Positions 1,965 to 63,404 of a DNA stretch of 64,000 bases are shown here, piece after piece. Source of the stretch: Desulfosporosinus sp. BRH_c37 (GTDB lineage Bacteria; Bacillota; Desulfitobacteriia; Desulfitobacteriales; Desulfitobacteriaceae). The stretch spans positions 1 through 64,000 of the forward strand of contig LOEW01000240.1 in the NCBI GenBank assembly GCA_001516045.1, given 5' to 3'. The notes under the pieces were generated by a model. That model saw nothing but the letters and a program-made list of their open reading frames with translations. It had not been told where the DNA came from and ran no database searches. A program made the translations under genes and the position numbers. Every line of letters begins with the position of its first letter. Positions within the stretch are counted from its first letter, which is position 1.

Positions 1965-1974
1965 ACTTCGTATT

Positions 1975-7664: not shown

Positions 7665-7671
7665 TGAACTC

Positions 7672-7694
7672 ACGCCCACTTATAAAAGTGGGCG
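7672..7694 (+). terminator. Hairpin after the third glycosyltransferase
   Basis: Ten-base arms ACGCCCACTT and AAGTGGGCGT with a 3-nt loop. It is followed by CTTGAAAAAGG without a T-run, so termination may be weak. Confidence 0.45.
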
Positions 7695-7756
7695 TCTTGA
7701 AAAAGGATAAACGATTCTTGGAAAAATGGTTTTTTTAGGGAAGGGAGTTGCAAATA

Positions 7757-9376: not shown

Positions 9377-9548
9377 CAAAAGAATGAAAAAAGTCATGAG
9401 CAAAATTTGCTCCCTTTCCTATCACAAGGCCCGTCGTAAAGAATCATCTCCAACTTGCACGCAGACGGTGCACATGAAATCTCCAAAGCAGGTCTAGCCG
9501 TTCCCCGCTCCAGGCCCAGGACGCAGTGTGACACGCACACAAGTCCCC

Positions 9549-10565: not shown

Positions 10566-10679
10566 TTCCTCCCCACCTTTAAACCTAATACGATCTTTCT
10601 TTAATTAGAATTTGATTTAATTCCTATCTATAAAGTACGTACCCATACCTAATTTTGTGCAAGTCAAGAACCGTCGTCC

Positions 10680-11148
10680 GTGAAACTTGCAAATAGTAAA
10701 CGCCGACAAAACAATCCCAGCTACAGGACGGTGCACATAGAATGTGCCGTCTCACAAACAGCCCGCCTCCCCATCTTTCCGTTCCCCGCCCCAGCACAGG
10801 GCGCAGTGTGACACGAGTGCGACGTCTTTACGTAAGCAGTCTTGCAAACTTCCGTGTAAGCGACCCCAGATACGGGGCAGCGAACAAGGATGTGAGCTGC
10901 CGCCATTGCGCCATGACGATAAGCACGATACTCTCCAGTGGAGAGTATTGCCGAGCCACACACCCAAAATGATACTTCGTGGCGAAGGAACGAGCTTATC
11001 GCCACACTGCAACTCATTACGCATACTCCTGCAGTGTGGATTGGCGCATTTGGCGGGAACCCCGTGCCTTCTATTAGAGCTTACACGGTTAGTTTGCTCT
11101 GCGTCGTATGTACCGAGCGCTGTGTCACACAAGGCCCTCACAAGTCCC
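10680..11148. repeat. Inverted-repeat-dense GC-rich intergenic region
   Basis: The 583-bp gap between the two large DUF6385-like genes has no credible gene, although several overlapping frames stay open on both strands. It holds at least three clear inverted repeats: 10727-10751 (GACGG-CACAT/ATGTG-CCGTC), 10928-10948 (ATACTCTCCA/TGGAGAGTAT) and 11002-11039 (CCACACTGCA/TGCAGTGTGG). An outer pair GTGTGACAC (10806) and GTGTCACAC (11122) brackets most of it. A diverged copy of its left part lies at 9465-9546. It is either a structured RNA or a decayed mobile element. Confidence 0.6.
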
Positions 11149-12192
11149 TTAATTTTGAGCCTGAACCCAGATTCTTAAAGTAGTTAAACCATCCGCCCAA
11201 TAAGATAACCTTGTATAACGCAGAAAATTTTTAGATGAGACAATGACTAATTTTCCAGGACCGACCTCTAATCGATCACCCTCACTCCTCCAATGAACAC
11301 CATCAGGGCTAAGCTCTGCCTGTACATGCGCAGGGTCTGTCCCGAAATTATACACTGCAAAGGAAAAGCGAGGTAAAGCAGAAACATCCCGAGTTGTTGT
11401 TTCGGACATTGTTTGGCTAGCTGTAACATCTTCGAGGCTTTCATGAAACCCGTGGCCAAAAATTTCAACTTGAGCACGACCGCTACTTGACGTGGCTAAA
11501 GGAACCTGACTGCTTCCGCAAATTTGCACCCTGTCACGAGTCGTTGTGAGATTTCGAATATCGGCATTAACATTAGCCTGGACCGTTACGGGAAGCTTTA
11601 AAGGAATTGGTGCAGCAAGATGAATCGGTTTAATTATCTCTCCGATGGTGTTAATATGATGAATCTCCTTCTTTGCCATTGTTACTCGCCTTTTCATACG
11701 ATTTGGTGTAAGGGGATACGCGATTAATTTATATATATATAAGTCCCCCGGTCCTAAAACGCCCATCTCCAAACGCAGAAACTGAATCTCAGAACCTACA
11801 CTTACGACTTGCTTTAACTGCTCTTGCTTCATCCCAAGACTAAAGCTAAATTCCCACGGCTTAGATATGTCACCGTTTGAACTAATAGGGTACATACGTA
11901 AATAGGCCTTTAGATCAGGCATACCACTTTTGAGAACCATAAATATCTGCCAATCTTCATCTTTTCGAACGTCTAGAGAAGCCTCGTAGGTTTGGATGAT
12001 TCCTGCTCTGAGAGCAGTCAAATTTTTTATCTCCAAACTAGGTATTTTCTTGATATCTGCAAATTTCCAGCTAGTTTGGTGATTTCCGCCAATTTGAAGC
12101 CATGCATCCGGAAAAATTGAATGGGTCTCACTTTTTCTTTGGAAATCCCCATTATATAGTTTATTAAACATCCCTATTAGTTTCTTTTCCAT
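11149..12192 (-). CDS. Large DUF6385-like surface protein
   Basis: 347 aa. ATG 12192 (MEKKLIGMFN) is chosen because GGAGGG sits 8 nt upstream. The architecture copies that of the gene at 9549: an N-terminal beta domain (FPDAWLQIGGNHQTSWKF), the motif ADIRNLTTTRDRVQICG, and a C-terminal domain with FAVYNFGTDPAHVQAELSPD and FLRYTRLSYW. Identity to its neighbour is moderate, so the duplication is old. No signal peptide or membrane segment is seen. Probably transcribed separately from the neighbour because of the structured spacer between them. Confidence 0.8.
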   Translation of the reverse strand: MEKKLIGMFNKLYNGDFQRKSETHSIFPDAWLQIGGNHQTSWKFADIKKIPSLEIKNLTALRAGIIQTYEASLDVRKDEDWQIFMVLKSGMPDLKAYLRMYPISSNGDISKPWEFSFSLGMKQEQLKQVVSVGSEIQFLRLEMGVLGPGDLYIYKLIAYPLTPNRMKRRVTMAKKEIHHINTIGEIIKPIHLAAPIPLKLPVTVQANVNADIRNLTTTRDRVQICGSSQVPLATSSSGRAQVEIFGHGFHESLEDVTASQTMSETTTRDVSALPRFSFAVYNFGTDPAHVQAELSPDGVHWRSEGDRLEVGPGKLVIVSSKNFLRYTRLSYWADGLTTLRIWVQAQN

Positions 12193-12386
12193 CTCAAAAC
12201 CCTCCATCATCGGGTGATTAACAAAGAGCTGTCAACCTATTCTATCGGTTTAACCGCAAGAATAGACTAAAATTTAAACCATTTCGATTAATCCCAAAAA
12301 CTGGGCATTGATTACTTCCATGATTCGTGCTAAATTTGTGTTGTACAAGTTATATAAAGAAACTAAAGATATTAGCGCAAAAAATT

Positions 12387-12408
12387 AAACCTCCCGACGG
12401 GGAGGTTT
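12387..12408 (-). terminator. Terminator AAACCTCCC/GGGAGGTTT
   Basis: A 9-bp stem with T-rich tails on both sides (TTTCTTTCT on +, TTTAATTTTTT on -). It lies downstream of the homocysteine operon and can end it. Confidence 0.75.
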
Positions 12409-12520
12409 CTTTCTATTTATTATCTTTCTAGCATTATCTATTATCTTAGTTTAAAAGGAAGAGTTACCAAGCACTGGCTTACCCCTTCCCTTCTTAAATT
12501 CTATTAATTTCTGAGAATAC

Positions 12521-12550
12521 AGTAGGGGCAATTCATAAATTGCCCCTACT
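12521..12550 (-). terminator. Hairpin just after the UPF0280 gene
   Basis: AGTAGGGGCAATT and AATTGCCCCTACT form a 13-bp perfect stem four bases after the stop codon at 12554. Little T-run follows, so with 12387-12408 it may act as a tandem terminator or a 3' stabiliser. Confidence 0.6.
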
Positions 12551-12553
12551 GTA

Positions 12554-13294
12554 TTACATCGGGAGTAGCTTCACTTTTCCCCAAACCGCTAAACGATCAT
12601 CTTTAATGATTAGAACACCCTTAACCCCTATGATCTCTGAAGCAAATTCGAGAGCTCTTTCCAAATCGTCCATCGACTGAACAAAGTTCCCGCAGGCCGT
12701 AGCAACCGCATCGGCTAGAGCCACCGAGGGAGAGAGGACGACAACGGCATCGGCTTTACCAAAGCTCAGGGAAGGCCCCACCTTGCCGGACGAAGTACAA
12801 ATCCCGAGGGGAGTTTCGTCTGGACGGACCTCAATAGCCAGCCGATTAGTCAGCGGTGAATCCCCTGCGAAAATCCCGACCTTACGTATACGGCTCGTAC
12901 GTATGAAGATATCTCCGCCATTTTCCACAATCACGTCCCTGGAGCGTTTGGCAATTAATTTCCCGACCCACTCTGAAACGGCACCGGCGACCGCAGCCAT
13001 TGGTCCCACCCCGGCAAGACGCCCAGCTTCTGCCATAGTTTGAACCATCAAGGGGGCATCCGGCAAAACCGTGTAGGGCGTTATGGCACTCAGAAAACCG
13101 GGGTCTCTCTGGATATAGTCCTCAAGTGGTCTACGGCAGGCCCGGATCGTCTCTTTTACCCATTCAACTAGTTCAGCCGAAAACCGTTCTTTGCGAACCC
13201 CGATATCAAGGTCAGTTTCCGCCACTGCCAGCTGAAAATGTACCAGATCCACCTGGCGGTGATCCTGCCTATAAAAACGTTCTGTGTAATCCAA
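12554..13294 (-). CDS. UPF0280 family (ApbE-like) protein
   Basis: 246 aa, starting at TTG 13294 with GGAGG about 12 nt upstream inside the preceding gene. Family features include AGRLAGVGPMAAVAGAVSE, IVENGGDIFI and CTSSGKVGPSLSFGKADAVV, which resemble the flavin-handling fold of ApbE (COG2122). In Methanosarcina and many sulfate reducers this gene travels with the DUF39 and NIL-ferredoxin genes, as here, with 1-4 nt gaps. It is presumed to support the redox chemistry that turns aspartate semialdehyde plus sulfide into homocysteine. The exact reaction of this subunit is not known to me. Confidence 0.85.
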   Translation of the reverse strand: MDYTERFYRQDHRQVDLVHFQLAVAETDLDIGVRKERFSAELVEWVKETIRACRRPLEDYIQRDPGFLSAITPYTVLPDAPLMVQTMAEAGRLAGVGPMAAVAGAVSEWVGKLIAKRSRDVIVENGGDIFIRTSRIRKVGIFAGDSPLTNRLAIEVRPDETPLGICTSSGKVGPSLSFGKADAVVVLSPSVALADAVATACGNFVQSMDDLERALEFASEIIGVKGVLIIKDDRLAVWGKVKLLPM

Positions 13295-50594: not shown

Positions 50595-51833
50595 TTAAAA
50601 AATAAAATTGGCTTCCGCAAAGCGGCATTTTACTTCCTTTACAATACGACGCTCATCGTCTTCGTCTTTAGCTTCAAAAGTTACAGATAATCTAACATAT
50701 GATCCGGCATCATCCCATGGAACAACGGAAATCAATTTTTCTGTAATTAGATATTGGGAAAAATCTTCGGCCGATTCAAATATACGCCCGGCTTTAGTTG
50801 CCTTTGGAATACGAACATAAAGATAAAAAGATGCTCTCGGTTTCTTTACGGAAAAACCCAGATTATTAAGTGCCTCTACTAACAAGTTGTGTCGACGAGA
50901 ATATTTCAAAGCAGTTCTTTCAGTTATTTCTGGGTGTTGTAAACAATAAATACCAGCTTTTTGTATCGCGGCAAATTGTCCAGAATCGTTATTATCTTTT
51001 ACGGAGGCAAAACCTTTTACAACTAGTTCGTTACCACAAATAAATGCTAGTCGCCATCCAGTCATATTATAGGACTTTGATAACGAGTGAACCTCAATCC
51101 CTACATCTTTTGCCCCGTCTACAGTTAAAAAACTCAGGGGTTTTTCGCTATCAAAAGTAAGGGCTGCATACGCAGCATCAGAAACAACAATTATTGAATT
51201 TTCTTGAGCGAATTGCACGACTTTCTGAAAAAACTCTTTGGATACCGTCGCTCCAGTCGGGTTATTAGGATAGTTAATATATAGCAACTTTGCTCTGCGC
51301 CGTTGTTCCGATGTTAGGGAATCCAAATCCGGTAAAAAGTTGTTTTCTTCATACAATGGTAAATTAACAACTTCGCCATTTAATGCTTTTGTCATTGTAC
51401 CCATAACAGGATAGCCGGGAACGGTCATAATAGTTATGTCCCCTGGATTGATAAATGCTAATGGTAAAAGAGCTAATATTGATTTTGAACCAACACCATG
51501 GTTAACTTCGTTAATATGATCTAAACCGTAGACATTGTATACTTTCTCCATATACTTAACAGCTGCATCTTTGAAATCTTGAATACCATTACCAGTATAG
51601 CCTCTATTTTCTCTCTTTTTCGCTTCATCGTTTAAAACATTTATAATTTCAGGTTCCGCCATCCAATCTGGTTCGCCGATACCTAAATCAATTAATTCTA
51701 CACTAGGGTTTCTTATTGTCGCAGCGTTCTTAGCCCTAGTAACTTTTTCAAATTTATATAAAAATGCATCATTACCAAATTTATTACCCCCAACTCGTTC
51801 AGCGAAAAGCTGCTGAATAAAATTTTCGTTCAT
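50595..51833 (-). CDS. LL-DAP / succinyl-DAP-type aminotransferase
   Basis: 412 aa from ATG 51833 (MNENFIQQLFAERVGGNKFG), AAAGGA 11-12 nt upstream; ATG 51845 is too near. Class I/II PLP aminotransferase: DLGIGEPDWMAEPEIIN, VNHGVGSKSILALLPLAFIN, YINYPNNPTGA, and the Schiff-base lysine in HSLSKSYNMTGWRLAF. Length and motifs fit the DapL/DapC group that aminates tetrahydrodipicolinate or N-acyl-2-amino-6-ketopimelate. It is the last gene of the DAP cluster, about 0.7 kb from lysA across decayed elements. Confidence 0.82.
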   Translation of the reverse strand: MNENFIQQLFAERVGGNKFGNDAFLYKFEKVTRAKNAATIRNPSVELIDLGIGEPDWMAEPEIINVLNDEAKKRENRGYTGNGIQDFKDAAVKYMEKVYNVYGLDHINEVNHGVGSKSILALLPLAFINPGDITIMTVPGYPVMGTMTKALNGEVVNLPLYEENNFLPDLDSLTSEQRRRAKLLYINYPNNPTGATVSKEFFQKVVQFAQENSIIVVSDAAYAALTFDSEKPLSFLTVDGAKDVGIEVHSLSKSYNMTGWRLAFICGNELVVKGFASVKDNNDSGQFAAIQKAGIYCLQHPEITERTALKYSRRHNLLVEALNNLGFSVKKPRASFYLYVRIPKATKAGRIFESAEDFSQYLITEKLISVVPWDDAGSYVRLSVTFEAKDEDDERRIVKEVKCRFAEANFIF

Positions 51834-52009
51834 TTTAAGTTTCATTCCTTTCGCTGTGCTCAAGGCACAAAAACTTATGAAAGTGTTCCCTGGTGGATAT
51901 GGATAAGCAGATACACTACAGAGCACGGGGAGGTGAGTGGTGCAGGGTTTAGAACCCTGCACGCATTTTAAGATGTGCCGTTTGCTATTTTCGCCAATAG
52001 ACAAAGCCG

Positions 52010-52135
52010 TCACCGACCTTGCTACGGGTAGAAGGGTTATCTTCGGTGACCCCACCTCCACAGATCCCGGTGTGCAGATTTCCCGCATTGGAAAGCCGAC
52101 CAGCCTGTACCAAGGGCTTCAAGTTTTAGTGCCCG
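52010..52135 (-). ncRNA. Group II intron 3' remnant (domains V-VI)
   Basis: Minus strand: GGCTTTCCAATGCGGGAAAT and CTGCACACCGGGATC form a degenerate domain V (52063-52097), followed by a domain VI-like segment ending CCTTCTACCCG. A homologous remnant is at 63560-63640. No maturase remains. Confidence 0.55.
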
Positions 52136-52347
52136 CTGCAAATGGTTAATATCAGTATAATTAGCCCTTTTAAGCGGGAAGTTCTATAGCTTCGATCGTT
52201 TCCAAAAGAAATTAGGTAATCAATTGAGTACCATGAAGCGATCGCTTGACCCCAATTATCTACTGTCTACTTGACAGAGGGCAGTACAACGATCCGATGG
52301 CGTGCAAGCCGAGTCACCAAGTACAAACCTCAGAGGTGTTAAAACTA

Positions 52348-52388
52348 GAGCCCTCAATCAGAATCGAACTGTTGATGCTTACTTACCA
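52348..52388 (-). other. tRNA-Thr(GGT) 3' fragment, decayed
   Basis: Minus strand ATGGTAAG ... CAACAGTTCGATTCTG-ATTGAGGGCTC, the anticodon-stem to acceptor part of a tRNA-Thr(GGT), with one bulge in the T stem. No 5' half. A likely second integration-site scar. Confidence 0.55.
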
Positions 52389-52523
52389 TTTATACGCCTA
52401 ATACGCCGGAGAGAAAAGAATTTCCATTTATTAAGTGATTTAATATCTTTTTGCATTTTGTTATCCCTTAATGGGAGTAAAAAGGGCAGCACCTTATTCT
52501 ACAAACATATTTTCCAAAAACCT

Positions 52524-53747
52524 TTAACATATAAAATTTCTCTCAATGTCTTCAAATGTATCCCTTTTCCGTATTAACTTATCTTCACCATTATGACAAA
52601 TTAAAACTTCTGCAGGCCTTAACCTACAGTTATAATTTGAACACATAGCAAAGCCATAAGCTCCTGAGTTCATTACAGCTAAAACATCTCTCTCAATAAT
52701 CTCTGGAAGAATCCTATCTTTTGCTATTATATCACCACTTTCACATATATTACCAACAATCGTTACTTCCTCATTTTCACCATAATTTCCGCTTCGTTTA
52801 ACAACTTGAACTTCATGATATGAATCATACAATATAGGTCTTGCAAGTACGTTGAAACCCAGATCAGTTCCGATATACTTAACTCCATAATTATATTTAA
52901 CAGAGCAGACTTCCCCCAAGAGTATTCCGCTCTCAGCAACAATATACCTACCCGGTTCTATCTTAAACATAACTCCCTCGTTATCATAATCCTTAAGAAA
53001 ATTTGCAAACTCAGCATCAAGCTTTTCAGATAATTTAGCCAAATCAAGCCTATTTTCATCCTTTTTGTAAGGAACTCCAAAACCGCCACCCATATCAATA
53101 AATTTGAGCCCTTTAAACTCTTTAGCAATTTCCAACAGCATTCTCACACCAACTATATACTGATCTTCATCAAGGAACAATGAACCTATGTGCTGGTTAA
53201 TTCCTATCAACTTCAAATCATATTCTTTAATTAATTCTTTTACTTGTCCAACAAAATTTTTCTGTACCCCAAACTTAGTCTTCTTCCCGGCAGTTACAAC
53301 TTTTTCATGATGACCGGCCCCTACACCCGGATTGAATCTTACAGCCACTTGTCCTCCTCGGTTTATTTTACCAAAAAGCTCTAATTGGGATAGGGAATCA
53401 ACACTGACAAGTATGCCTCTTTCTACTGCATACATAATTTCATCTGCCCAAACATTATTTCCGATATAGAATATCCTTTCATTAGTAAACCCTGCCTTTT
53501 GCTGTATATAAATTTCTCCCGGTGACATTGCATCTACATCTATATCCTCACTCATAACAATTTTTAACAATTCCAAGTTACTGTTTGCCTTTGCTGAATA
53601 ATTTACCCTCAAATTCTTATTGGGCAATAGATTCCTCATCTCTTTGCAGCGAATCCTTAATGTATCTTCATCATATACATATAAAGGAGTGCCGTATTTT
53701 TCAACTAACTCAAATATTCTTTCATCACTGATAAAAATGTCACCCAT
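52524..53747 (-). CDS. lysA: Diaminopimelate decarboxylase
   Basis: 407 aa. PLP-dependent fold type III: VNYSAKANSNLELLKI (lysine), VDAMSPGEI, GINQHIGSLF, FKIEPGRYIVAESGILLGE, NICESGDIIAKD (second-subunit cysteine) and GAYGFAMCSNYNCRLRPAEV. Converts meso-DAP to L-lysine. ATG 53747 has GGGAGG 6 nt upstream. All active-site residues are present. It lies 121 nt after the PP-loop gene, separated by a large hairpin. Confidence 0.92.
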   Translation of the reverse strand: MGDIFISDERIFELVEKYGTPLYVYDEDTLRIRCKEMRNLLPNKNLRVNYSAKANSNLELLKIVMSEDIDVDAMSPGEIYIQQKAGFTNERIFYIGNNVWADEIMYAVERGILVSVDSLSQLELFGKINRGGQVAVRFNPGVGAGHHEKVVTAGKKTKFGVQKNFVGQVKELIKEYDLKLIGINQHIGSLFLDEDQYIVGVRMLLEIAKEFKGLKFIDMGGGFGVPYKKDENRLDLAKLSEKLDAEFANFLKDYDNEGVMFKIEPGRYIVAESGILLGEVCSVKYNYGVKYIGTDLGFNVLARPILYDSYHEVQVVKRSGNYGENEEVTIVGNICESGDIIAKDRILPEIIERDVLAVMNSGAYGFAMCSNYNCRLRPAEVLICHNGEDKLIRKRDTFEDIERNFIC

Positions 53748-53799
53748 TTTGAACCTCCCATTTTTTATTTTTGTAATAAAGAAAATTTTCTTCTATAAA

Positions 53800-53842
53800 T
53801 TAAAAGCGTATAATAAAGTTATACTTTATTATACGCTTTTAA
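53800..53842. repeat. 43-bp perfect palindrome
   Basis: TTAAAAGCGTATAATAAAGT and its exact complement around TAT: 20-bp arms. It can work as a terminator or attenuator between the PP-loop gene and lysA, and each arm contains TATAAT. Confidence 0.85.
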
Positions 53843-53868
53843 AATAACAAATTTCTTCGCTAATTTTA

Positions 53869-54924
53869 TCACTTATTAATAATTATTTCCACATCTAGCT
53901 TCAGTGTTTTTATAACTTCATTAACATGGTCCATATTCAATTCAAAATCTTTCCCAAAAAATAAATTATAATACTTTTCCCTAGGAGCATTTCCAAACCT
54001 GATTAAATCCGAAAAAGGTGCAATAAAGCCGTCATAACCTAATCTGGCTTTATCAATATAGCACATGGCGTCTAATATCTTACACCTGGTTTTCAGAGGA
54101 TTAGATTTTTCTGCAGAAATCAGGTCTAATTCTTTAAGCTTATTTACAACTACTTCTTCGTTATAGTCCCATACATGGAAAGGAAGAATAACTTTAAGAT
54201 TCTTTTCAGCATCTGTTTTCGCACTCCATATATATGACTTATCCCTTCTTTCAAAGTAGGCTTCATCAAAATATTCTTCTTTCATCCAATTAGCATTTAT
54301 ATGGTCATATGGTACTTCATAGAAATACCTGTTAACCTGTTCAGGAGATAAGCCTATAAAAACCAAAGGAATATTAAAAAATGTTGCAATCTTCATAACT
54401 GAACCTTCTAGTATATTGGAGCAATCCGCACACATGGAATCAAATACTGCTTTTGTCTGATAATTTTCGAATTTATATTTAAAGAATCTTTCCATAAAGC
54501 CTGTATTTAATTTAAAGTTCACAACGTCAATACCTAATTTTGTCGGTACTTTATTAATATTCTCCGTTGTGACTTTAGGCATGAAGCCATGATCAAATGT
54601 GATAGCCAAAATATTCAACTTATACTTTTCCTTTAAAAGCCAGAGTAGATAGGAACTATCCTTTCCACCGCTAAAGCCAACTGCACAATCATACAGACCT
54701 TTACCTCTGACGGACTCAATTATTTCGTCAATTTCCATTGCACATTTTGTTTTATATTCGTTTGTAATATCCCTTTCCTTTCCAACAGATTTATTGGTTG
54801 TACAATAACTGCATACGCCTTCTTCATTAAATTCTATATCCCTAAAAGTTGTTGGCAAAATACATTTTTTACAAATTTGCACCTCTCTTGCTTTAGCTTG
54901 ATTTATAATACCTTCGACATTCAT
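53869..54924 (-). CDS. PP-loop ATP pyrophosphatase (N-acetyl-sugar amidotransferase-like)
   Basis: 351 aa from ATG 54924 (MNVEGIINQAKAREVQ), with GAGGAGG 8 nt upstream. Zinc-type cysteines near the N-terminus (CKKCILPTTFRDIEF, CSYC), then the PP-loop FSGGKDSSYLLWLLKEK, GLSPEQVNRYFYEVPY and a mid-chain CADCSN. The family adenylates a carbonyl or carboxyl and replaces oxygen by N or S (WbpG-type sugar amidotransferases; related thioamide-forming alpha hydrolases). Inside a DAP cluster it is a candidate amidating or thionating tailoring enzyme. 14 nt after the dapD-like gene ends. Confidence 0.8.
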   Translation of the reverse strand: MNVEGIINQAKAREVQICKKCILPTTFRDIEFNEEGVCSYCTTNKSVGKERDITNEYKTKCAMEIDEIIESVRGKGLYDCAVGFSGGKDSSYLLWLLKEKYKLNILAITFDHGFMPKVTTENINKVPTKLGIDVVNFKLNTGFMERFFKYKFENYQTKAVFDSMCADCSNILEGSVMKIATFFNIPLVFIGLSPEQVNRYFYEVPYDHINANWMKEEYFDEAYFERRDKSYIWSAKTDAEKNLKVILPFHVWDYNEEVVVNKLKELDLISAEKSNPLKTRCKILDAMCYIDKARLGYDGFIAPFSDLIRFGNAPREKYYNLFFGKDFELNMDHVNEVIKTLKLDVEIIINK

Positions 54925-54944
54925 TAACATGACCTCCTCAAAAT

Positions 54945-55838
54945 TTATTTCAACTCTTGCGGAATTAAGTCCCTTAAAACATCTTCAAGCTTAATGCTTT
55001 TATAATTGTCTTCAACATATTTTATAATAATAGGACATTGCACTGACAATTTTAAACCATTAAATAGTTCTCCTTTAATAATTCGTGCCCCGGGTACGAC
55101 CATTGCCCCTTCAGGAATAACTAAAGGCTTGGATTGTGTCCGTGAATAAATCTTACCCTTAACAGCATCGTAGACTGACACACCACCAGTAATAATCGTT
55201 CCGGCGCCTATAATCGCACCTTTTTTAACTATTGCACCGTCATATATTCCACAATTCCCCCCAACAAATACATTATCTTCAATTATAACTGGAAATTCAC
55301 CTATAGGCTCGAGCACCCCCCCTATTTGTGCTCCGGCACTTATGTGTACTTTCTTACCAATTTGAGAACAGGAACCTACTAAAGAATTTGAATCAATTAA
55401 TGTATCTTCATCTATATAGGCACCAATATTGATAAAACTTGGGGACATACATATTACTCCTTGTGCTACATAGCATCCATCTCTAATAGTTACATTATTT
55501 GAAGTAACTCTCACTTTATCGGAGCGTCTTAGCTTTTTCTGTCCTAAAGTTTCTTTGTCAAAAAACCTCCCCTCGGCGTTTAAGCCAAATTCTTTTACAT
55601 TTCCATATTTTAAACCCAAAAGTATAAACTGCTTGACCCAAAAATTAACCTTCCATTCTTCTCCTATTTTTTCTGCAGCTCTGATTCGCCCCATATTTAA
55701 ATCATTCTTAAAACTTTTAAAATACTCCAAGAAATCATTCGATGATTCATTATCAACATTCTCCATAAATCCTCTATATTTACATTCTAGCTTTTCAGTA
55801 TAAAATCTTTCCTTTGCAGTCATAAGTTCTCTTATCAC
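54945..55838 (-). CDS. dapD: Tetrahydrodipicolinate N-succinyltransferase
   Basis: 297 aa from GTG 55838 (GGAAGGGG 9 nt upstream). Left-handed beta-helix acyltransferase: INIGAYIDEDTLIDSNSLVG, GSCSQIGKKVHISAGAQIGG, VLEPIGEFPVIIEDNVFVGG. The N-terminal AAEKIGEEWKVNFWVKQFIL and the length fit DapD rather than DapH. Acylates tetrahydrodipicolinate using succinyl-CoA. The M20 gene is 40 nt upstream and the PP-loop gene 14 nt downstream. Confidence 0.85.
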   Translation of the reverse strand: MIRELMTAKERFYTEKLECKYRGFMENVDNESSNDFLEYFKSFKNDLNMGRIRAAEKIGEEWKVNFWVKQFILLGLKYGNVKEFGLNAEGRFFDKETLGQKKLRRSDKVRVTSNNVTIRDGCYVAQGVICMSPSFINIGAYIDEDTLIDSNSLVGSCSQIGKKVHISAGAQIGGVLEPIGEFPVIIEDNVFVGGNCGIYDGAIVKKGAIIGAGTIITGGVSVYDAVKGKIYSRTQSKPLVIPEGAMVVPGARIIKGELFNGLKLSVQCPIIIKYVEDNYKSIKLEDVLRDLIPQELK

Positions 55839-55878
55839 AATATTTTTCCCCTTCCTTCTAAACTAATCAAACTATGAT

Positions 55879-57018
55879 TTAAATCAAATATTTCTTTGCA
55901 ATACTACAGAAAAGCTCAAGTCCAATAAGCATGGCCTTTTCATTTACATAAAAATTAGGATTATGCTGGGGATAATACTTATCACTTTGACATCCGATGA
56001 AGGTTAACGTTCCTGGTATTTTTTGTTGAAAATGAGAAAAATCTTCTGTACACATTGTCCTATAAGACTTAATTACATTTTCACTGCCAACTATTTGTTC
56101 AGATAACTTTGTAATTTGAATAGCTTCCTCCTGTGAATTAATAACCGGAGGATGCTTAAATATATATTCAACTACTGCATCTCCACCAAAGCTTCTAGCT
56201 ATTGATACGGCAATATGCTTAATCCTTTCGGAAACAAACCTCCTTACCTCATTATCATAGGTTCTGCAAGTCCCTTTAATGGTAACTTTTTCACAAATAG
56301 TATTAAAATTGCAACCGCCGCTAATACTGCATATAGACACTACCACAGTTTCAATAGGACTAACATTTCTGCTAACAATTGATTGCAAAGCAACAACTAC
56401 TTGGGAAGCGATAAAAATAGCGTCAATAGATTTTTCAGGTAATGCTGCATGACCGGCTTTGCCAAGAATTTCAATAAGAAACTCATCTCCAGATGCCATT
56501 ACAGGTCCACCACATATCCCGATTTTTCCTTCTTCAACTTCGCTCCAAACATGAAGAGCAAAAGCTTTATCGACAGTTGGATGTTCAAGTACACCTTGAT
56601 CAATCATCGATGCTGCTCCACCAAGCCCTTCTTCCCCAGGCTGGAAAACCAACTTTACCGTACCTTTAATAGAATTTTTCTTTTGAGTTAAAAGGTTGGC
56701 TAAACCCAATAAAATAGCCATATGTGCATCATGTCCACAAGCATGTTTAATACTATTTGGATCATCTGGATCTGTTAAAATTGCATCCATATCTGCCCTA
56801 AACATAATACAAGGCTTATTCGCATCTCCTCTTATTAAGCCCATCACACCTGTCTGTGCAATATTTTCCCTCACCTCAAATCCAAGTTCACTTAGCCTTT
56901 TTGAAATATAGTTTGATGTTTTATATTCTAAAAAACCCAATTCCGGATTTGCATTAAAATAGTTCTTATCCATCATTAAAGTATCCTTTAAGTTAAGTAC
57001 ATCATCTGATATCCTCAT
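55879..57018 (-). CDS. M20 amidohydrolase (N-acyl-DAP deacylase type)
   Basis: 379 aa. Metal-binding and catalytic motifs: IKHACGHDAHMAILLGLANL, FQPGEEGLGGAASMIDQGVL, ALHVWSEVEEGKIGICGGPV and a late EDFSHFQQKIPGTLTFIGC. This is the M20D group (hippuricase, N-acetyl-DAP deacetylase). Given its neighbours, it most likely removes the acyl group from N-acyl-LL-DAP. AAGGAGG lies 4 nt before ATG 57018. A long inverted repeat precedes it in the leader (57059-57159). Confidence 0.82.
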   Translation of the reverse strand: MRISDDVLNLKDTLMMDKNYFNANPELGFLEYKTSNYISKRLSELGFEVRENIAQTGVMGLIRGDANKPCIMFRADMDAILTDPDDPNSIKHACGHDAHMAILLGLANLLTQKKNSIKGTVKLVFQPGEEGLGGAASMIDQGVLEHPTVDKAFALHVWSEVEEGKIGICGGPVMASGDEFLIEILGKAGHAALPEKSIDAIFIASQVVVALQSIVSRNVSPIETVVVSICSISGGCNFNTICEKVTIKGTCRTYDNEVRRFVSERIKHIAVSIARSFGGDAVVEYIFKHPPVINSQEEAIQITKLSEQIVGSENVIKSYRTMCTEDFSHFQQKIPGTLTFIGCQSDKYYPQHNPNFYVNEKAMLIGLELFCSIAKKYLI

Positions 57019-57847
57019 GTAACCTCCTTAAATAATGCAATTTATAAATTAAGACAAATATATAAGTTCCGAATAATTTTCTTCATCTGTTCTTTGTACC
57101 TGCAACCATAGTAACAGTAATGTTTTGAATAAAGAAGTTGTAGATTATCTTTCGGAACTTATATAGATAGAATCAAAACCATTAAAAATTCAGCACTATT
57201 ACCTTATCTTTATCCATATCCGCTCAACATCAAATTCTCCGCCTTTGGAAGATACTATTGCATAATTGCATGAAAGTTCTAGAATATGCACTGAAGTTAA
57301 TGAAGCACACGCATCTGGTGCACAGGAACTAGTTTCTCCGCTCCCAAACGAGTATCATTAGTTTACTTTTGTTAATGATCTGGACAAATTCCACATTTAT
57401 CTTCTATGAAAATTGCTAGTAATTTTCAATCAAAGGGCCTAGTATTGTGACAGGCACTTCTTTAAATTATCTTCTATAAAGTACTGCATGAGAATTACCT
57501 ATGGAGAGAGCTGTTATTTGTGCTGTACTACATCCCAAATAAAAAGTCTTCATTTTACCGAATCCCCTTCAAACAAAGCAGGAATATCCTCAGGGTTAAA
57601 CGAAGCTTTCCCATACTCATTGATATTTTAACTTCATCCAAAATAGAGGTATGTACAATTCTTTAAATTGAAAAATCAAACCAATCTCCCCAATACTTAA
57701 GTAAGTCAAAATTCTTGCATATCTTTATATTTTCCAGTCATTTATTTATAAATCCCTGTCCCTCCTTTTTTCAATGACATAGCATGTCAAGCAGATAGTA
57801 AATATATGCCGCTACAATGCCCATCACTCATTTATCTAGATAAATAT
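57019..57847. other. 0.8-kb gap between the M20 and MFS genes
   Basis: No gene supported. Contains the M20 promoter/leader with a 15-bp inverted repeat and AT-rich filler; no riboswitch core (lysine L-box) is seen. Confidence 0.5.
57059..57159 (-). promoter_or_regulatory. Leader inverted repeat before the M20 gene
   Basis: TATATAAGTTCCGAA and TTCGGAACTTATATA, perfect 15-bp arms 71 nt apart, 41 nt before the start codon in the transcription direction. A regulatory stem or operator pair. Confidence 0.4.
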
Positions 57848-59113
57848 TCAACAGTCATAAAATATTCCTGCTTGATCTTCTACCATGGAGTTTCTGCTCT
57901 TATCTTCTAATTTATATAGAAATGACATAGCCAATGTAGAAACAATCATAACTATAAATATTGCAGGCCAAATCTGCCTTGTACCAAAACTGTGCATAAA
58001 ACCTCCCATTATTACTGGGCCTACGAAGAATCCCAAACGGGATACTATAATGGCTACTGAAATAAACCTTCCTCTGAAGTCAGGAGGACTTTTACTCACG
58101 ACATATACAGTAAAGTTGGTACTGTATAAAATTTCGCCTATTGTCCATATAACCGTGGCAATCATGCATAATTCAAAGTTTACTGTTATATAATACATTC
58201 CAAAGCCTATACCATATAACACCCCGGCCATAACCATATTCAAAATCGGTGAAAACTTATTAGTAAACTTAGTTATACTAGGAGTGAATATTAGTACGCT
58301 CAAACCATTCACAGTCATCAATAGGCCGAAATAATATGAGCCTCTATCAGAAAATAAATAATCCAAATGCAAGGGAAGTGAAAAGCTGAATTGTGAATAA
58401 CTAAATGTGTAAAAAGTTGAGATAAACGCAAAAGCAAATACTATCGGCGTTTTATAAAGGATTTTCAAAGTACTTCCATTCTCATCATTCTTATTGACTA
58501 ATTCATGTACATCGCAGTGGTGTCGCGGCTTTGATGGTTCCTCCACCATATATGAGATTAAAATAATAGATAAGAGCATAGTGAAAGCTTCTATACCAAA
58601 AATAAAGTTTGTATGTTTATAGAATAAAAATCCAGCAACCGACGGTCCGACTGAGAATCCCAAATTGAGCCCGAGATACATGAGTGAATAAGCCGATTTA
58701 CGCTGCTCGTTTGAAGTAAACTCGGCAACAAGAACATCTATAGCGGGATAGGAAGCTGCCACAAAAACAGATGATAAAACTATAAGGAATATTTTCAAAA
58801 TGGCTACTTCTGTAAAAACAACTGCCAGTACGCTAAAACCAGATAATGCTTGCGACAACATTAATACTTTTTTCTTACTATATCTATCCGACAATTTACC
58901 ACCAATCAATGACCCAGGTATAGATGAAATCGAGGTTAAAGTAACATATAATCCAGCAACTTCCTTACTATAACCTAACTTGATAGTTAGATAGAGACTT
59001 AAAAAAGGTAAGACAAATGATCCAAAAGCTGTAACAGCTCTTGCTACAAATAGAATATATACACTTCTGGAAAGACCCGCATATGTATCAAGCATATTCA
59101 ATTTCTTCAACAT
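57848..59113 (-). CDS. MFS transporter (probable exporter)
   Basis: 421 aa with 12 membrane segments. Motif A between TM2-3 is GGKLSDRYSKKKVLMLSQ, and GLNLGFSVGPSVAGF is the motif C type typical of antiporters. The C-terminal half has GRFISVAIIVSRLGFFVGPV. Belongs to drug/amino-acid export MFS proteins, so in this cluster it probably exports the final product or confers resistance. GGAGGAAC precedes ATG 59113. Confidence 0.85.
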   Translation of the reverse strand: MLKKLNMLDTYAGLSRSVYILFVARAVTAFGSFVLPFLSLYLTIKLGYSKEVAGLYVTLTSISSIPGSLIGGKLSDRYSKKKVLMLSQALSGFSVLAVVFTEVAILKIFLIVLSSVFVAASYPAIDVLVAEFTSNEQRKSAYSLMYLGLNLGFSVGPSVAGFLFYKHTNFIFGIEAFTMLLSIILISYMVEEPSKPRHHCDVHELVNKNDENGSTLKILYKTPIVFAFAFISTFYTFSYSQFSFSLPLHLDYLFSDRGSYYFGLLMTVNGLSVLIFTPSITKFTNKFSPILNMVMAGVLYGIGFGMYYITVNFELCMIATVIWTIGEILYSTNFTVYVVSKSPPDFRGRFISVAIIVSRLGFFVGPVIMGGFMHSFGTRQIWPAIFIVMIVSTLAMSFLYKLEDKSRNSMVEDQAGIFYDC

Positions 59114-59209
59114 CTAATTTTGTTCCTCCTGAAATTAAAACTTAAACTATTTATCAAAAAAATTATAAAATTTGTTATTCTAAGTGTAATATTTTGAAAA
59201 CAAAAATGT

Positions 59210-59295
59210 TATAATAAAAATGGCAATGAGAAATACACATTGCATCCCGCCCATGAGATAGTCGTCCGACCAAAGAGTCTATCTCGTGGGCTTTT
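59210..59295 (+). ncRNA. Candidate small RNA or leader with terminator
   Basis: TATAAT at 59210, then hairpin GGCAATG/CATTGC (59222-59244) and a strong terminator GCCCATGAGATAG/CTATCTCGTGGGC followed by TTTT (59249-59295). No reading frame lies inside. The -35 element is not clear. Confidence 0.45.
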
Positions 59296-59557
59296 CAATT
59301 TGTGTGTTCACTATATATAAACTCTCAAAATAAGTCAACCATTTTCTGGCTAATAATTATTTTGTTAGAAGTAAAGGAACTATTTGTAATTTATTCTCGA
59401 ATTTTAGAATTTCTTAACATATTGCCCCGAACAGACTCTTATTCCTATAGCACTCAAAAATCAAATTCAATCCCACTTTAAGCGGTGGACAAAATAGCAT
59501 CTCGAAAAAATCTCCTTCTTGTATTCTGTTAAAACAATGAATACAAGGAGGTTTTTT
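59296..59557. other. Intergenic region before IS66 remnant
   Basis: No gene. Contains TAAGCGGTGGACA near 59480, resembling an IS66 element end. Confidence 0.4.
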
Positions 59558-59674
59558 ATGGCTAGAGATTTAGCCCGAGAACAGTGTTGGCGAGATCGCA
59601 TTGAAGAATGCCGCCAGAGCGGACTGAGTGTACAGTCGTGGTGCCGGCAAAACGGACTGAAGAATACCTCTTAA
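59558..59674 (+). pseudogene. IS66-type accessory TnpA remnant
   Basis: 38 aa, MARDLAREQCWRDRIEECRQ then SWCRQNGLKNTS and stop. This is the N-terminus of the IS66 TnpA-like protein; the rest is gone. It lies between the MFS and dapF-like genes and splits the presumed operon. Confidence 0.8.
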
Positions 59675-59770
59675 CATTACAAATGCCACTTTTTCGCTGA
59701 GTCCTCCATGAACTGATGACCTATGAGGGCTATGAGGTGACGCCCCAATAAAATATAATTAACTCTCGTG

Positions 59771-60613
59771 TTATGTTAATAAATCTTTGCCAAAAAAACC
59801 TTTCGATACACTCTGTACTGTTCCAGTCATTTGAACGTACCCACTTGCTTGAATGTCAATTTGAATTGTTCCGCCAGGCATTTGAACTTGTACACAATTA
59901 TTAACAAGATTCAATTTATATGCCACATATGCTGCAGCGCAACCACCACTACCGGATGCTAAAGTACAACCTACTCCACGCTCCCATATCTCAATCTGTA
60001 TAGTATTTTTGTTAATTATTTTTAGTAATTGCGCTTTTATCCCATTTGGAAAGTTGGAGTGATTTTCTAATTTTGAACCGATTTCTTCAACTAATCCTTT
60101 AGATATCGTATTAAGAGGAATTACACAGTGGGGATTGCAAATAGAGAGACAGTTAACTTCATATTCATTATCATTCACTTGCAAATCTTCTTTAATTACT
60201 TCACGTTCCGGACCGTTAACAGGTATTAATTCACTTTTAAAAGTAACTTTACCCATATCAACTTTAACTATATTCGCATGTTCGTCTAATATTTCAGCTG
60301 AGACTTCTCCTCCCAAAGTTTGTATCTTCAATTTTTTAGTCTTGACATAGGGAGTATCCACTAAATACTTTGAAAAAATGCTAACACCATTGCCACTCTT
60401 TTCGGCTTCGCTTCCATCTGAGTTTAATATTCTTAAATTAATTCCATTATCGTAAAAAATCGGCCCATACAATATCCCATCGGCCCCTATACCAAATTTT
60501 CGATGGCATAACCTAATGATATTATCTTTTGTTAAATTCAAAGAAGTCTTATTTGGATCGATAACAATATAGTCATTCTCTAATGTTTTATACTTATAAA
60601 AATCAAAATTCAT
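59771..60613 (-). CDS. DapF-like protein lacking both catalytic cysteines
   Basis: 280 aa from ATG 60613 (MNFDFYKYKTLENDYIVID), GGAGG 9 nt upstream. It has the two-domain diaminopimelate-epimerase fold: FGIGADGILYGP, LRILNSDGSEAEKSGNGVS, SICNPHCVIPL, WERGVGCTLASGSGGCAA. The catalytic cysteines of DapF (in AxxCGNG and AxACGTG) are serines here (EKSGNG, LASGSG). Related folds without paired cysteines (PhzF, Thr-type proline-racemase relatives) do isomerisation or dehydration rather than racemisation, so this may not be an ordinary epimerase. Confidence 0.88.
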   Translation of the reverse strand: MNFDFYKYKTLENDYIVIDPNKTSLNLTKDNIIRLCHRKFGIGADGILYGPIFYDNGINLRILNSDGSEAEKSGNGVSIFSKYLVDTPYVKTKKLKIQTLGGEVSAEILDEHANIVKVDMGKVTFKSELIPVNGPEREVIKEDLQVNDNEYEVNCLSICNPHCVIPLNTISKGLVEEIGSKLENHSNFPNGIKAQLLKIINKNTIQIEIWERGVGCTLASGSGGCAAAYVAYKLNLVNNCVQVQMPGGTIQIDIQASGYVQMTGTVQSVSKGFFGKDLLT

Positions 60614-61129
60614 ATATAAAAACCTCCATACTAATATCAATTATCCCCCAAACCAGGTAACATCAGCACCTGAAGGTATCCCTTGGACAGCCCCACGGTC
60701 TTTCTTCTGGAAAAATCTCTATTGTGAACGATCCCATCTCTCCATGAAGTGGTCCAATTACAGTAATAAATTGGCCCTGCTGTAGTGCACATGGATGGAA
60801 GCCAGATAGGGAGCAAGAACCTCTACAATTTCCTCGGCCCCTTCGGCACCACGGTGGGCCCTTTTGTTTGGTCTCCCGCCACTGAAAAAAGAGAACCACC
60901 TATTTTAATAAACATTTCCCCGATAACTAACATTACTATAAAGGATTAATAATGTCGTAAGTATTTTGAAATATATTGTCGATATTATTAATAATTATCT
61001 TTAACTAGGAAAGTCTTGTAACTTAAATCTGATTCGTTAACGGTGGGGCTTCCATGAACAAGAGATCATGTTCTAGTTTTACAGCTGAAGAGATAGAGCT
61101 TGCTCCTCATGATCTGTGGAATCGGCAAG
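60614..61129. other. Gap between the DapF-like gene and IS200
   Basis: A 78-codon frame (60663-60899, -) has no recognised family and frame-mixed fragments; I do not accept it. No other gene is seen. Confidence 0.4.
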
Positions 61130-61770
61130 GATACTAAACGACCACCGGCTAAAGCCGGAGGATTTATATCGGACTGAAAGTCCGAATAAGGCTAAAGCCT
61201 GCTGAAAGCAACCGTTGGCTAAATGCCAACTAAAGCCTCTGACTAAAACTCATGTGTCTATTTTAAAGTTTTCTTCATCACCATCGGTTTGCTGGTTTTC
61301 GATATAATCTCTGATTATCTGATCTGTGACAGTTCCCACAGTTGCACAAAAATACCCTCTTGCCCAAAGGTGTTGACCCCAATATCGTTTTTTGAGATGA
61401 GGAAATTCTTCTTGAAGTAACCTCGATGATCGCCCCTTGAGGTACTGTGCAATCTTTGACGGAGAAAGTTGTGGCGGACACTCGATCAGAAGATGTATAT
61501 GCTCTTTACCAATACTACCTTTAATTATCGTTATACCTCGACTTAGACAACTTTGCCGGATTAATTCCCGTAGTCTTAATCCCACTTCATCCTTCAGAAC
61601 TTGGTATCTGTACTTCGTTACCCATACCAAATGGTACTTTATGTCATATATCGTGTGACTACCTCTTTGATAATCGGCCATATCATTCACCTCTTAAGTG
61701 AATGATATCCCAGCTGTTCAAAAAGTAATCATGCTAAAGCTGTTCGCCTAAAGGCGAAGGTTTTGGACCT
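61130..61770 (-). mobile_element. IS200/IS605-family element
   Basis: Single tnpA gene flanked by ends rich in TAAA-loop hairpins: left end ACCGGCTAAAGCCGGA, AGGCTAAAGCCT, GTTGGCTAAATGCCAAC; right end TTCGCCTAAAGGCGAA at 61747. No inverted repeats at the ends, as expected. The exact ends are estimates. Confidence 0.8.
61250..61681 (-). CDS. tnpA: IS200-family transposase TnpA
   Basis: 143 aa from ATG 61681 (MADYQRGSHTIYDIKYHLVW), AGAGGTG upstream. HUH single-strand transposase: KEHIHLLIECPP (HUH) and the catalytic Tyr in TVTDQIIRDYIENQQ. Intact, so the element may still move. Confidence 0.92.
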   Translation of the reverse strand: MADYQRGSHTIYDIKYHLVWVTKYRYQVLKDEVGLRLRELIRQSCLSRGITIIKGSIGKEHIHLLIECPPQLSPSKIAQYLKGRSSRLLQEEFPHLKKRYWGQHLWARGYFCATVGTVTDQIIRDYIENQQTDGDEENFKIDT

Positions 61771-62171
61771 GGTACTTGGAAAATAAATGACAGATTATAG
61801 AAAGACATCCTTGAAGTGGAGTAATATTTATTGTACAATGACTAATATTCAATTCTATTTCAGTATAGAAGTACCTGCATGCAGATAACTACTACATTAC
61901 GCTTTGTCAGTCTTCTTGCCACACTTCGGACGTGCCAGGGTATTCTGATAGAAAGGTCTAGGATTTTGCGGACAGGAATCCAGTACTTACCAATGGACTG
62001 CATGCCAACTTTCACACTATTATTTGAGAGCCACAGCGCTAAGGGGTGAGGCTCTCACCTTCCCGTACTCTGTACGTTTACTTGCACACAACCACCTAAA
62101 GGATAGCCAAAGTCAACAATTTTCAATAACTTTTTTGCCTAGTGAACACAACGAAAGGAATGGTTATAATA
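61771..62171. other. Leader region of the ATP-grasp gene
   Basis: No gene. Contains GTGAGAGCC/GGCTCTCAC (62041-62060) in a GC-richer stretch that looks like mobile-element debris, then an AT-rich promoter area. Confidence 0.4.
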
Positions 62172-63404
62172 ATGGAGAAAAGAAATACTTTAATTTTTTT
62201 AGATTCACAGTATATACTTGATGAAGTTAAGGAATTCCCAGAATTTTATAAAATTTTAATTATTGACAAAAATTCAAATATACATTCTAGTCAAATTAAT
62301 TATGAAAATTGTTTTGATTCTATTAAAGAAGTCGATAATATTCTTTCTGAAAATAATGTTATAGAATTAGTGGATTTAATCTTAAAAGAAGAAAATATTC
62401 AAATTAAATCTATTTTAGCTACTTTTGAAAATGTAGTTGAGATTGCAGGAATATTGAGAGAACGTTTTAATATAAAAACAGGTATTGGCCGTATACAAAC
62501 TGAAATTCTTCGAAACAAATTTCTAATGAAGAATAAAATTAAACAAAATGACTTGTTATGTGCTGAATGCTCTAAAGTTTATTCTGAAAATAATCTTTCA
62601 GAATTCGCTACTAATTATGGATTTCCTCTTGTTTTAAAGCCCATTAACGGAGCAGGTTCAAATAATACATATATTATTCATAATCAAATGGATATTATAA
62701 AATACGCCGCCCTAATGAGAAGTGACAGCAACACCACATGGATAGCTGAAAGCTTTATTGAAGGAGAAGAATATCACTGTGATTCAGTCGTGGTAGAAGG
62801 AAAAATTCTTTTAACTTCTATTGGAAAATATCATAATAATCAAATAAATACTGTAATTAGTGGAAAAATGGATGGAACTATTGTTTTTCCCTCTTCCGAT
62901 AAGGGAATCATAAACGAAAAAATAAAATTATTTAATCAACAAGTAATTAGAGCTCTCCAAATTGAGAACTCAATTTGTCATCTTGAAGTTTTTGTAACCC
63001 AAAAAACGGATATTTATTTCGGCGAAATAGGGATAAGGGTTCCTGGTGGTTATATTGGTAAATGTATTAATAATACACATAAAATTAATATTTATCATAC
63101 TTTTATAAGAGTAGAAATAGGAGAAAAGGAAATAGAATTTAGTCAAGGATCGAATAAATACACTGGAGTTGTTGCATTTCCATCGAAAAAGGGTGAAATT
63201 GTAGAAATATCATCAGAAGAAGATTTTAAAAAGGTACCTGGATTGGTGGAGCTATCAATTTTTAATAAAAAAGGTGATTTTATAAGTGAACGAACAAGTA
63301 CTCGTGAGAGAACTGGATATTTAATTGCTGAAAGTGAGAGTTTAGTTGAACTCAAAGCTACCCTTGAAAGAGTTTACGGTTTATATAGGTTGGAAACGAG
63401 GTAA
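62172..63404 (+). CDS. ATP-grasp carboxylate-amine ligase
   Basis: 410 aa from ATG 62172 (MEKRNTLIFLDSQYILDEVK), AAAGGAA 12 nt upstream. Biotin-carboxylase-like ATP-grasp: LVLKPINGAGSNNTYIIHNQ (ATP lysine), WIAESFIEGEEYHCDSVV and FGEIGIRVPGG (metal site). Such ligases join amino acids or acids by an amide bond via acyl phosphate and are typical of dipeptide and natural-product pathways. On the plus strand, opposite to the rest of the cluster, separated by IS200. AT-rich like the dap genes, so it is probably part of the same cluster (inference). Confidence 0.82.
   Translation: MEKRNTLIFLDSQYILDEVKEFPEFYKILIIDKNSNIHSSQINYENCFDSIKEVDNILSENNVIELVDLILKEENIQIKSILATFENVVEIAGILRERFNIKTGIGRIQTEILRNKFLMKNKIKQNDLLCAECSKVYSENNLSEFATNYGFPLVLKPINGAGSNNTYIIHNQMDIIKYAALMRSDSNTTWIAESFIEGEEYHCDSVVVEGKILLTSIGKYHNNQINTVISGKMDGTIVFPSSDKGIINEKIKLFNQQVIRALQIENSICHLEVFVTQKTDIYFGEIGIRVPGGYIGKCINNTHKINIYHTFIRVEIGEKEIEFSQGSNKYTGVVAFPSKKGEIVEISSEEDFKKVPGLVELSIFNKKGDFISERTSTRERTGYLIAESESLVELKATLERVYGLYRLETR

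What the first reader, a model, noticed from the sequence alone, without database searches (positions are those of the whole stretch)
50595..63404. DAP/lysine-derived metabolite cluster with ligase, PP-loop enzyme and exporter
Seen: DapD-type succinyltransferase, DapC/DapL-type aminotransferase, M20 deacylase, DapF-like protein and LysA, all on the minus strand, with a PP-loop enzyme 14 nt from dapD, an MFS exporter, and an ATP-grasp ligase on the other strand. Known: the first five together take tetrahydrodipicolinate to lysine, a route usually scattered and needed only once per genome, while PP-loop, ATP-grasp and MFS proteins are hallmarks of small-molecule pathways. dapA, dapB and aspartokinase are absent, so the cluster starts at a branch point. 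Inference: a specialised cluster making an N-acyl, amide or thioamide compound from DAP or lysine, not described to my knowledge.
Basis: partly seen in the sequence, partly recalled or inferred. Interest (0 to 1): 0.87.

Follow-up and report, generated by a model that had tools for sequence, protein, structure and literature searches.

The report
Acquired lysine-branch small-molecule gene island
An anaerobic bacterium carries an acquired, unusually modified copy of the lysine-making branch linked to a peptide-bond-forming enzyme, an exporter and a tailoring enzyme with a likely metal site, which probably makes an unknown small amino-acid compound rather than plain lysine.

Summary
The genes are really there. 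The locus is a low-GC, horizontally acquired island seen in no relative searched (74 genomes of the order for the PP-loop gene, 398 of the phylum for DapD). It combines three sub-modules. (1) LysA, DapF and a DapL-type aminotransferase, 51-59% identical to a TrmB-lysA-dapF-dapL operon in two other Bacillota genomes. (2) A tight M20-DapD-PP-loop unit found nowhere else. (3) An ATP-grasp L-amino-acid ligase plus MFS exporter whose best relatives are neighbouring genes in bacilysin-like loci. Several parts look repurposed. DapF lacks both catalytic cysteines (Ser/Ser) and belongs to a distinct 100%-supported Ser/Ser clade. DapD has lost the residue matching E. coli Glu189. The PP-loop protein carries, besides a zinc tetracysteine, a three-cysteine motif that is strictly all-or-none in 92 proteins, as in [4Fe-4S] thiolases. 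The genome keeps other lysA, dapF and dapL candidates, so the island is not the only route. Best reading: a tabtoxin/bacilysin-like but distinct pathway making a modified lysine/DAP-type amino acid or dipeptide. Product, and N versus S insertion, unknown. Main rival: a redundant acquired lysine route with chance neighbours.

The parts
50595..51833 (-). aminotransferase, DapL (LL-DAP aminotransferase) type; first ATG supported by homology near 51833
   Evidence: NF004937 679 bits, over the 585 cut-off; 57% and 51% identical to the aminotransferase of operons in G312 and G460
52524..53747 (-). LysA, diaminopimelate decarboxylase, canonical type
   Evidence: TIGR01048 385 bits, cut-off 298; 56-61% to LysA of TrmB-lysA loci; only 26-28% to the genome's other LysAs and to Nonomuraea TabA
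53800..53842 (.). perfect 20-bp hairpin with flanking A/T runs: terminator-like element between PP-loop gene and lysA
   Evidence: fold -27.5 kcal/mol for the intergenic stretch, z -6.4
53869..54930 (-). PP-loop ATP pyrophosphatase of the N-acetyl sugar amidotransferase (NASAT/WbuX) superfamily with Zn tetracysteine plus Cys triad C167/C170/C283
   Evidence: TIGR03573 135 bits, below its 203 cut-off; motif invariance and all-or-none triad; fold search
54945..55838 (-). DapD-type hexapeptide acyltransferase with altered active-site region (E. coli E189 to G197; VDTW to IDSN)
   Evidence: NF008808 267 bits, cut-off 204; alignment
55879..57018 (-). M20-family amidohydrolase/deacylase (TIGR01891 type)
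   Evidence: 304 bits, cut-off 154; IAA-amino-acid hydrolase and YxeP are the closest solved structures by sequence
57223..57612 (-). decayed dapF remnant, apparently Cys-type
   Evidence: tblastn of DapF family, E down to 2e-11 with in-frame stops
57848..59113 (-). MFS exporter of a subfamily found beside L-amino-acid ligases
   Evidence: Pfam MFS_1; 38% to the MFS gene adjacent to the ligase homologue on Priestia p-LAD2, best of all plasmids
59771..60610 (-). DapF-fold protein of the Ser/Ser clade
   Evidence: TIGR00652 222 bits; Ser for Cys73 and Cys217; clade of 10, support 100/100
61250..61690 (-). IS200/IS605 transposase (insertion, not part of the pathway)
   Evidence: NF033573 158 bits
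62142..63404 (+). ATP-grasp L-amino-acid ligase
   Evidence: LAL_C2 and ATP-grasp_4; L-amino acid ligase structure 4wd3 E=4e-34; DdaF model 93 bits, far below its 840 cut-off

Best explanation
The island encodes a specialised branch off lysine biosynthesis. Housekeeping DapA/DapB supply tetrahydrodipicolinate. The DapD-like enzyme acylates it or a close analogue, the aminotransferase aminates it, the M20 enzyme removes the acyl group, the Ser/Ser DapF protein acts on the resulting diamino acid, and LysA decarboxylates it, giving lysine or a DAP/lysine-like amino acid. The PP-loop enzyme, probably co-transcribed with DapD and M20, adenylates a carbonyl of one of these intermediates and exchanges oxygen for sulfur or nitrogen. 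The ATP-grasp ligase joins the product to another amino acid, and the MFS protein exports it. Shown: gene content, linkage, family membership, residue changes and redundancy with other genes in the genome. Inferred: the order of steps, the substrate of each repurposed enzyme, the dipeptide nature of the product and export. Unknown: the final compound.
For: Redundancy: other lysA, dapF and dapL candidates in the genome; complete G410 has only the ~300-bit LysA type, which this genome has twice. Ligase and MFS each have their best plasmid relative in one adjacent pair, with clear margins (218 vs 124 and 251 vs 156 bits), and G066 has the same pair beside DUF2000. Genes of the sub-modules are interleaved: the MFS gene lies between M20 and dapF, the PP-loop gene between lysA and dapD. 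All eight genes share low GC (0.28-0.37) against 0.41-0.53 for most other window genes tested. The PP-loop Cys triad is all-or-none in 92 proteins (78 all, 14 none), matching the three-Cys [4Fe-4S] site of NcsA/TtuA (PMC10067955; fold hits). DapD lost E189. DapF is a Ser/Ser clade member. Precedent: tabtoxin uses LysA-, DapD-, aminotransferase-, D-Ala-D-Ala-ligase- and transporter-like genes (PMC3927611).
Against: LysA, DapF and aminotransferase occur together elsewhere without the rest. LysA looks fully canonical. The ligase lies on the other strand behind a transposase, and MFS and dapF are each more than 650 nt from their neighbours. A dapF remnant shows decay. No regulator or resistance gene was identified. 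Triad-bearing relatives often (20 of 76) sit beside HisH/HisF-type ammonia enzymes, so the triad does not prove sulfur chemistry.
Confidence: 0.5

Rival explanations
1. An acquired, redundant lysine/DAP route. The aminotransferase, DapF and LysA came as a lysine operon (as in G312/G460) and DapD, M20 and the relic dapF as a second, acylated variant. PP-loop, MFS and ligase are unrelated neighbours gathered by mobile elements.
For: TrmB-lysA-dapF-dapL operon elsewhere with overlapping genes and again in G460; canonical LysA motif set; DapD and DapF pass their family cut-offs; IS200 in the locus.
Against: The PP-loop gene is 14 nt from dapD on the same strand. Ligase and MFS are partners in other genomes. 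DapF and DapD have lost catalytic or active-site residues. The genome already has lysine genes.
Confidence: 0.3
2. A decaying island: once a working pathway, now partly broken (dapF relic, split by IS elements, possibly inactive Ser/Ser DapF).
For: dapF remnant with stops, IS200 insertion, a long non-coding stretch between aminotransferase and lysA.
Against: Eight full-length frames with family-conserved motifs; Ser/Ser is a clade-wide trait, not local decay.
Confidence: 0.12
3. A cell-surface glycan or peptidoglycan modification locus: the PP-loop protein acts as an N-acetyl sugar amidotransferase and the dap genes supply a DAP/lysine decoration.
For: Best solved-structure match is N-acetyl sugar amidotransferase 8wex.
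Against: No sugar-nucleotide or glycosyltransferase gene in the island and no HisH/HisF beside it; score under the WbuX cut-off; 8wex lacks the first pair of the Cys triad in the alignment.
Confidence: 0.08

Closest known systems
Tabtoxin biosynthesis cluster (Pseudomonas syringae; tabtoxin-like clusters in Nonomuraea gerenzanensis and shipworm symbionts)
   Same: Starts at tetrahydrodipicolinate; LysA-like, DapD-like, aminotransferase, a D-Ala-D-Ala-ligase-like (ATP-grasp) enzyme, a metallopeptidase and a transporter (PMC3927611; PMC5431353; PMC7329324).
   Different: No beta-lactam synthetase TblS, clavaminate-synthase-like TblC, GMC oxidoreductase TblD or TblA here. Window LysA is 26% to Nonomuraea TabA, less than to ordinary LysA (41%). 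The PP-loop protein is of the NASAT type instead.
Bacilysin-like L-amino-acid ligase / MFS loci (Priestia aryabhattai p-LAD2; genome G066)
   Same: Ligase (32-33%) and MFS (34-38%) homologous to an adjacent pair.
   Different: No prephenate-dehydratase-like or DUF2000 gene here; dap genes instead; ligase and MFS are separated and on opposite strands.
DapL-type operon TrmB-lysA-dapF(Ser/Ser)-dapL in Bacillota genomes G312 and G460
   Same: Three orthologous proteins at 51-59% identity.
   Different: There compact and without DapD, M20, PP-loop, MFS or ligase; here scattered and without the TrmB regulator.
N-acetyl sugar amidotransferase (NASAT: WbpG, WbuX, LpNASAT 8wex)
   Same: Fold, SGGKDS PP-loop and Zn tetracysteine CxxC...GxCxxC (PMC10607449).
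   Different: Carries an additional CxxC...C triad as in NcsA/TtuA/TtcA; no HisH/HisF partners; no sugar genes.

Membership tests
Tabtoxin-type cluster | LysA-like, DapD-like and aminotransferase genes together | tested here: met
Tabtoxin-type cluster | beta-lactam synthetase TblS, TblC dioxygenase, TblD oxidoreductase and TblA | tested here: not met
   no such ORF in the island; a GMC oxidoreductase, a TauD dioxygenase and a methyltransferase-like gene do flank LysA-DapD in the Nonomuraea locus
Tabtoxin-type cluster | LysA of the TabA type | tested here: not met
   26% to Nonomuraea TabA-like protein; 41% to Aureibacter LysA
Housekeeping lysine pathway | sole copy of the DAP-to-lysine genes in the genome | tested here: not met
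   other lysA, dapF and dapL candidates
Diaminopimelate epimerase DapF | family profile above cut-off | tested here: met
   TIGR00652 222 bits vs 115
Diaminopimelate epimerase DapF | two catalytic cysteines (H. influenzae Cys73, Cys217) | tested here: not met
   both Ser
DapD succinyltransferase | family profile above cut-off | tested here: met
   NF008808 267 vs 204 bits
DapD succinyltransferase | active-site Asp141 and Glu189 (role recalled from memory) | tested here: not met
   Asp kept (D149), Glu replaced by Gly197
NASAT / WbuX | curated WbuX score | tested here: not met
   135 vs 203 bits
NASAT / WbuX | SGGxDS and CxxC...[GN]xCxxC | tested here: met
[4Fe-4S]-dependent PP-loop thiolases (TtcA/TtuA/NcsA) | CxxC...C cluster-binding triad after the PP-loop | tested here: met
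   C167, C170, C283; all-or-none in 92 proteins
[4Fe-4S]-dependent PP-loop thiolases (TtcA/TtuA/NcsA) | bound [4Fe-4S] cluster and sulfur transfer | not testable with these tools
   needs purified protein
L-amino-acid ligase (ATP-grasp) | ATP-grasp_4 plus LAL_C2 domains | tested here: met
   4wd3 structure match

The most novel reading that the evidence does not exclude
A new class of lysine-branch natural product (a sulfur- or amidine-bearing DAP/lysine amino acid or dipeptide) built by a metal-triad PP-loop enzyme of the so-called N-acetyl sugar amidotransferase family, with a Ser/Ser DapF that works by chemistry other than the two-thiol epimerase mechanism.
Probability: 0.25. Interest if true: 0.82.

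Novelty: new variant of a known kind. Interest (0 to 1): 0.55.

Why it matters
If right, it is a further, independent recruitment of the lysine branch for a natural product, in an anaerobe and with no NRPS or PKS gene for standard finders to catch. Two parts matter regardless of the product. A whole clade of DapF proteins lacks both cysteines held to be catalytic, yet sits in lysA-dapF-dapL operons. And most relatives examined of a protein annotated as a sugar amidotransferase carry what looks like an iron-sulfur triad. Both are directly testable with purified proteins.

Tried and rejected
Direct tabtoxin membership (hallmark genes missing, TabA type not matched). Housekeeping lysine route as the only route (other copies exist). 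TtcA/TtuA-like triad as proof of thiolation: rejected because 20 of 76 triad-bearing relatives sit by HisH/HisF. DapD search in 398 phylum genomes and 29 of G312's class: none (neither sample holds a positive control beyond the window itself). Riboswitch/T-box control: no credible Rfam match. Literature search for the gene combination: nothing held. My own first LysA alignment used the wrong strand for the C247 copy; the comparison was redone.
Full report
What is there. The ORF and profile scans confirm, on the minus strand, a DapL-type aminotransferase, LysA, a PP-loop protein, a DapD-type acyltransferase, an M20 amidohydrolase, an MFS transporter and a DapF-fold protein. An IS200 transposase follows, then an ATP-grasp L-amino-acid ligase on the plus strand. 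Spacing: LysA/PP-loop 121 nt, PP-loop/DapD 14, DapD/M20 40, M20/MFS 829, MFS/DapF 657. A very stable hairpin (z -6.4) lies between the PP-loop gene and lysA, so M20-dapD-PP-loop is probably one unit and lysA another. Pieces of a second, decayed dapF lie at 57223-57612.

Origin. The eight genes have GC 0.28-0.37 and GC3 0.17-0.31. Most other window genes tested have GC 0.41-0.53; the exceptions are a helicase-like gene and a group II intron protein at 0.35-0.38. No other of the 74 genomes searched in the order has a close PP-loop homologue, and no other of 398 phylum genomes has this DapD at E<=1e-25. I infer the island was acquired, possibly from more than one donor.

Is it the primary lysine route? 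The genome has two further LysA-like genes (C76, C247), a canonical DapF (C223) and a DapL candidate (C6). Most genus members have a ~500-bit LysA that is missing here, but complete genome G410 lacks it too and has only the ~300-bit type, while G003 and G155 have only the 500-bit one. I infer either type suffices. That the 300-bit type makes lysine is not proven: in sequence it lies closer to the TabA-like protein of Nonomuraea (40-43%) than to ordinary LysA (27-28%).

The lysine sub-module. Window LysA, DapF and aminotransferase are 58.5, 58 and 57% identical to three overlapping consecutive genes in G312, preceded by a TrmB-family regulator, and 59, 55 and 51% in G460. Similar identity levels argue that these three genes travelled together. 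In those genomes there is no PP-loop, DapD, M20, MFS or ligase homologue beside them. This is the strongest argument for the rival that part of the island is simply a lysine operon.

The Ser/Ser DapF. In alignment with canonical DapF and solved structures, the two catalytic cysteines are Ser (SGNG and ASGSG). This is not local decay. Nine relatives, eight from Bacillota and one from an Agrobacterium vitis plasmid, are also Ser/Ser. The ten form one side of a 100/100-supported branch against eleven other DapFs, ten of which read Cys/Cys (the motif search did not resolve the eleventh). Genomes such as G312 and G248 also keep a second DapF match (its cysteines were not read). Published single Cys-to-Ser mutants of a DapF-fold racemase lose most activity (PMC11602996), and such mutation is described as hindering catalysis in the family (PMC12039745), so the clade either uses different chemistry or acts on a different substrate. 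Its place in lysA-dapF-dapL operons suggests DAP, which makes it a clear biochemical puzzle.

The PP-loop protein. It is distantly a NASAT/WbuX protein (135 bits, cut-off 203). The AlphaFold model (pLDDT 73) matches LpNASAT 8wex best, then NcsA and TtuA, with LarE lower. It has the NASAT zinc tetracysteine (PMC10607449) and in addition C167xxC170 and C283. Over 92 proteins this triad is present as all three (78) or none (14), never mixed, which strongly indicates a metal site. Its position after the PP-loop corresponds to the [4Fe-4S] ligands of NcsA (Cys142/145/233; PMC10067955). It does not settle N versus S: 20 of 76 triad loci have HisH/HisF-like genes nearby. The window has none.

The DapD protein passes its family cut-off but has Gly where E. 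coli has Glu189 and IDSN where VDTW or IDTW is otherwise seen; even the Nonomuraea TabB-like protein keeps the Glu and the Trp. The role of Glu189 is from memory.

Ligase and exporter. Among 72,556 plasmids the best hit of each is a gene of one adjacent pair on Priestia p-LAD2, beside prephenate-dehydratase-like, DUF2000 and aminotransferase genes. G066 has the same pair with DUF2000. So although they are 3 kb apart and on opposite strands here, I infer they belong together and point to a dipeptide-type product.

How it likely works. See best explanation. What is shown is gene content and residue changes; the chemistry is inferred. The closest precedent is tabtoxin (PMC3927611), which this is not: its hallmark genes are missing. 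I rate it a new variant of a known kind, with about even odds that it is a specialised pathway at all.

Noticed in passing
L198 9867-10739; L199 9729-10589; L200; L201; L202; L203; L204; L211; L167 7956-8852: A DapF clade with both catalytic cysteines replaced by serine: 7 of 398 sampled Bacillota genomes besides the window's own, plus G460 and an Agrobacterium vitis plasmid; several of these genomes also hold a second DapF match.
   Followed up: yes
PP-loop proteins of L046-L156: The extra Cys triad in NASAT-family proteins is strictly all-or-none (78 all, 14 none, with replacements TIS, SYY, DDH and others), suggesting the family splits into metal-triad and triad-less enzymes.
   Followed up: partly
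L167 4921-12116: Agrobacterium vitis pRvVAT039a: desaturase, haem-oxygenase-like diiron enzyme, 2OG-Fe dioxygenase, Ser/Ser DapF, molybdopterin oxidoreductase and aldo/keto reductase in a row: a possible uncharacterised biosynthetic locus.
   Followed up: no
L073 5986-18669 (G428): Same-genus genome with a triad PP-loop gene in a run that looks, by eye, like a PPTase / KAS-III-like / AMP-ligase / NRPS locus.
   Followed up: no
L047 10589-14159: Triad PP-loop gene between a probable B12-radical-SAM protein and a ThiF/E1-like protein (read by eye from the sequences).
   Followed up: no
L213 3463-7611 (G464); L056 6118-8060: TrmB-lysA pairs; in G464 flanked by an ammonium transporter and two PII-like genes (by eye), suggesting nitrogen control of this LysA. 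The window genome's C247 lysA also has a TrmB-like neighbour.
   Followed up: no
window 59205-59310, + strand: Divergent to the MFS gene: TATAAT-like box and a short stretch ending in a strong GC-rich terminator-like hairpin (z -4.9), possibly a small RNA or attenuator; no Rfam match.
   Followed up: partly
window 1-13000: Run of glycosyltransferase-TPR-like proteins and repeat-rich paralogues, including 'AITSTGLAIEPPTGGLLITS' repeats in the ORF at 1975-2880.
   Followed up: no
L055 13766-15025, L056 6118-7356: Two LysA paralogues of the window genome are 40-43% to the Nonomuraea TabA-like protein, well above their 27-28% to other LysAs.
   Followed up: partly
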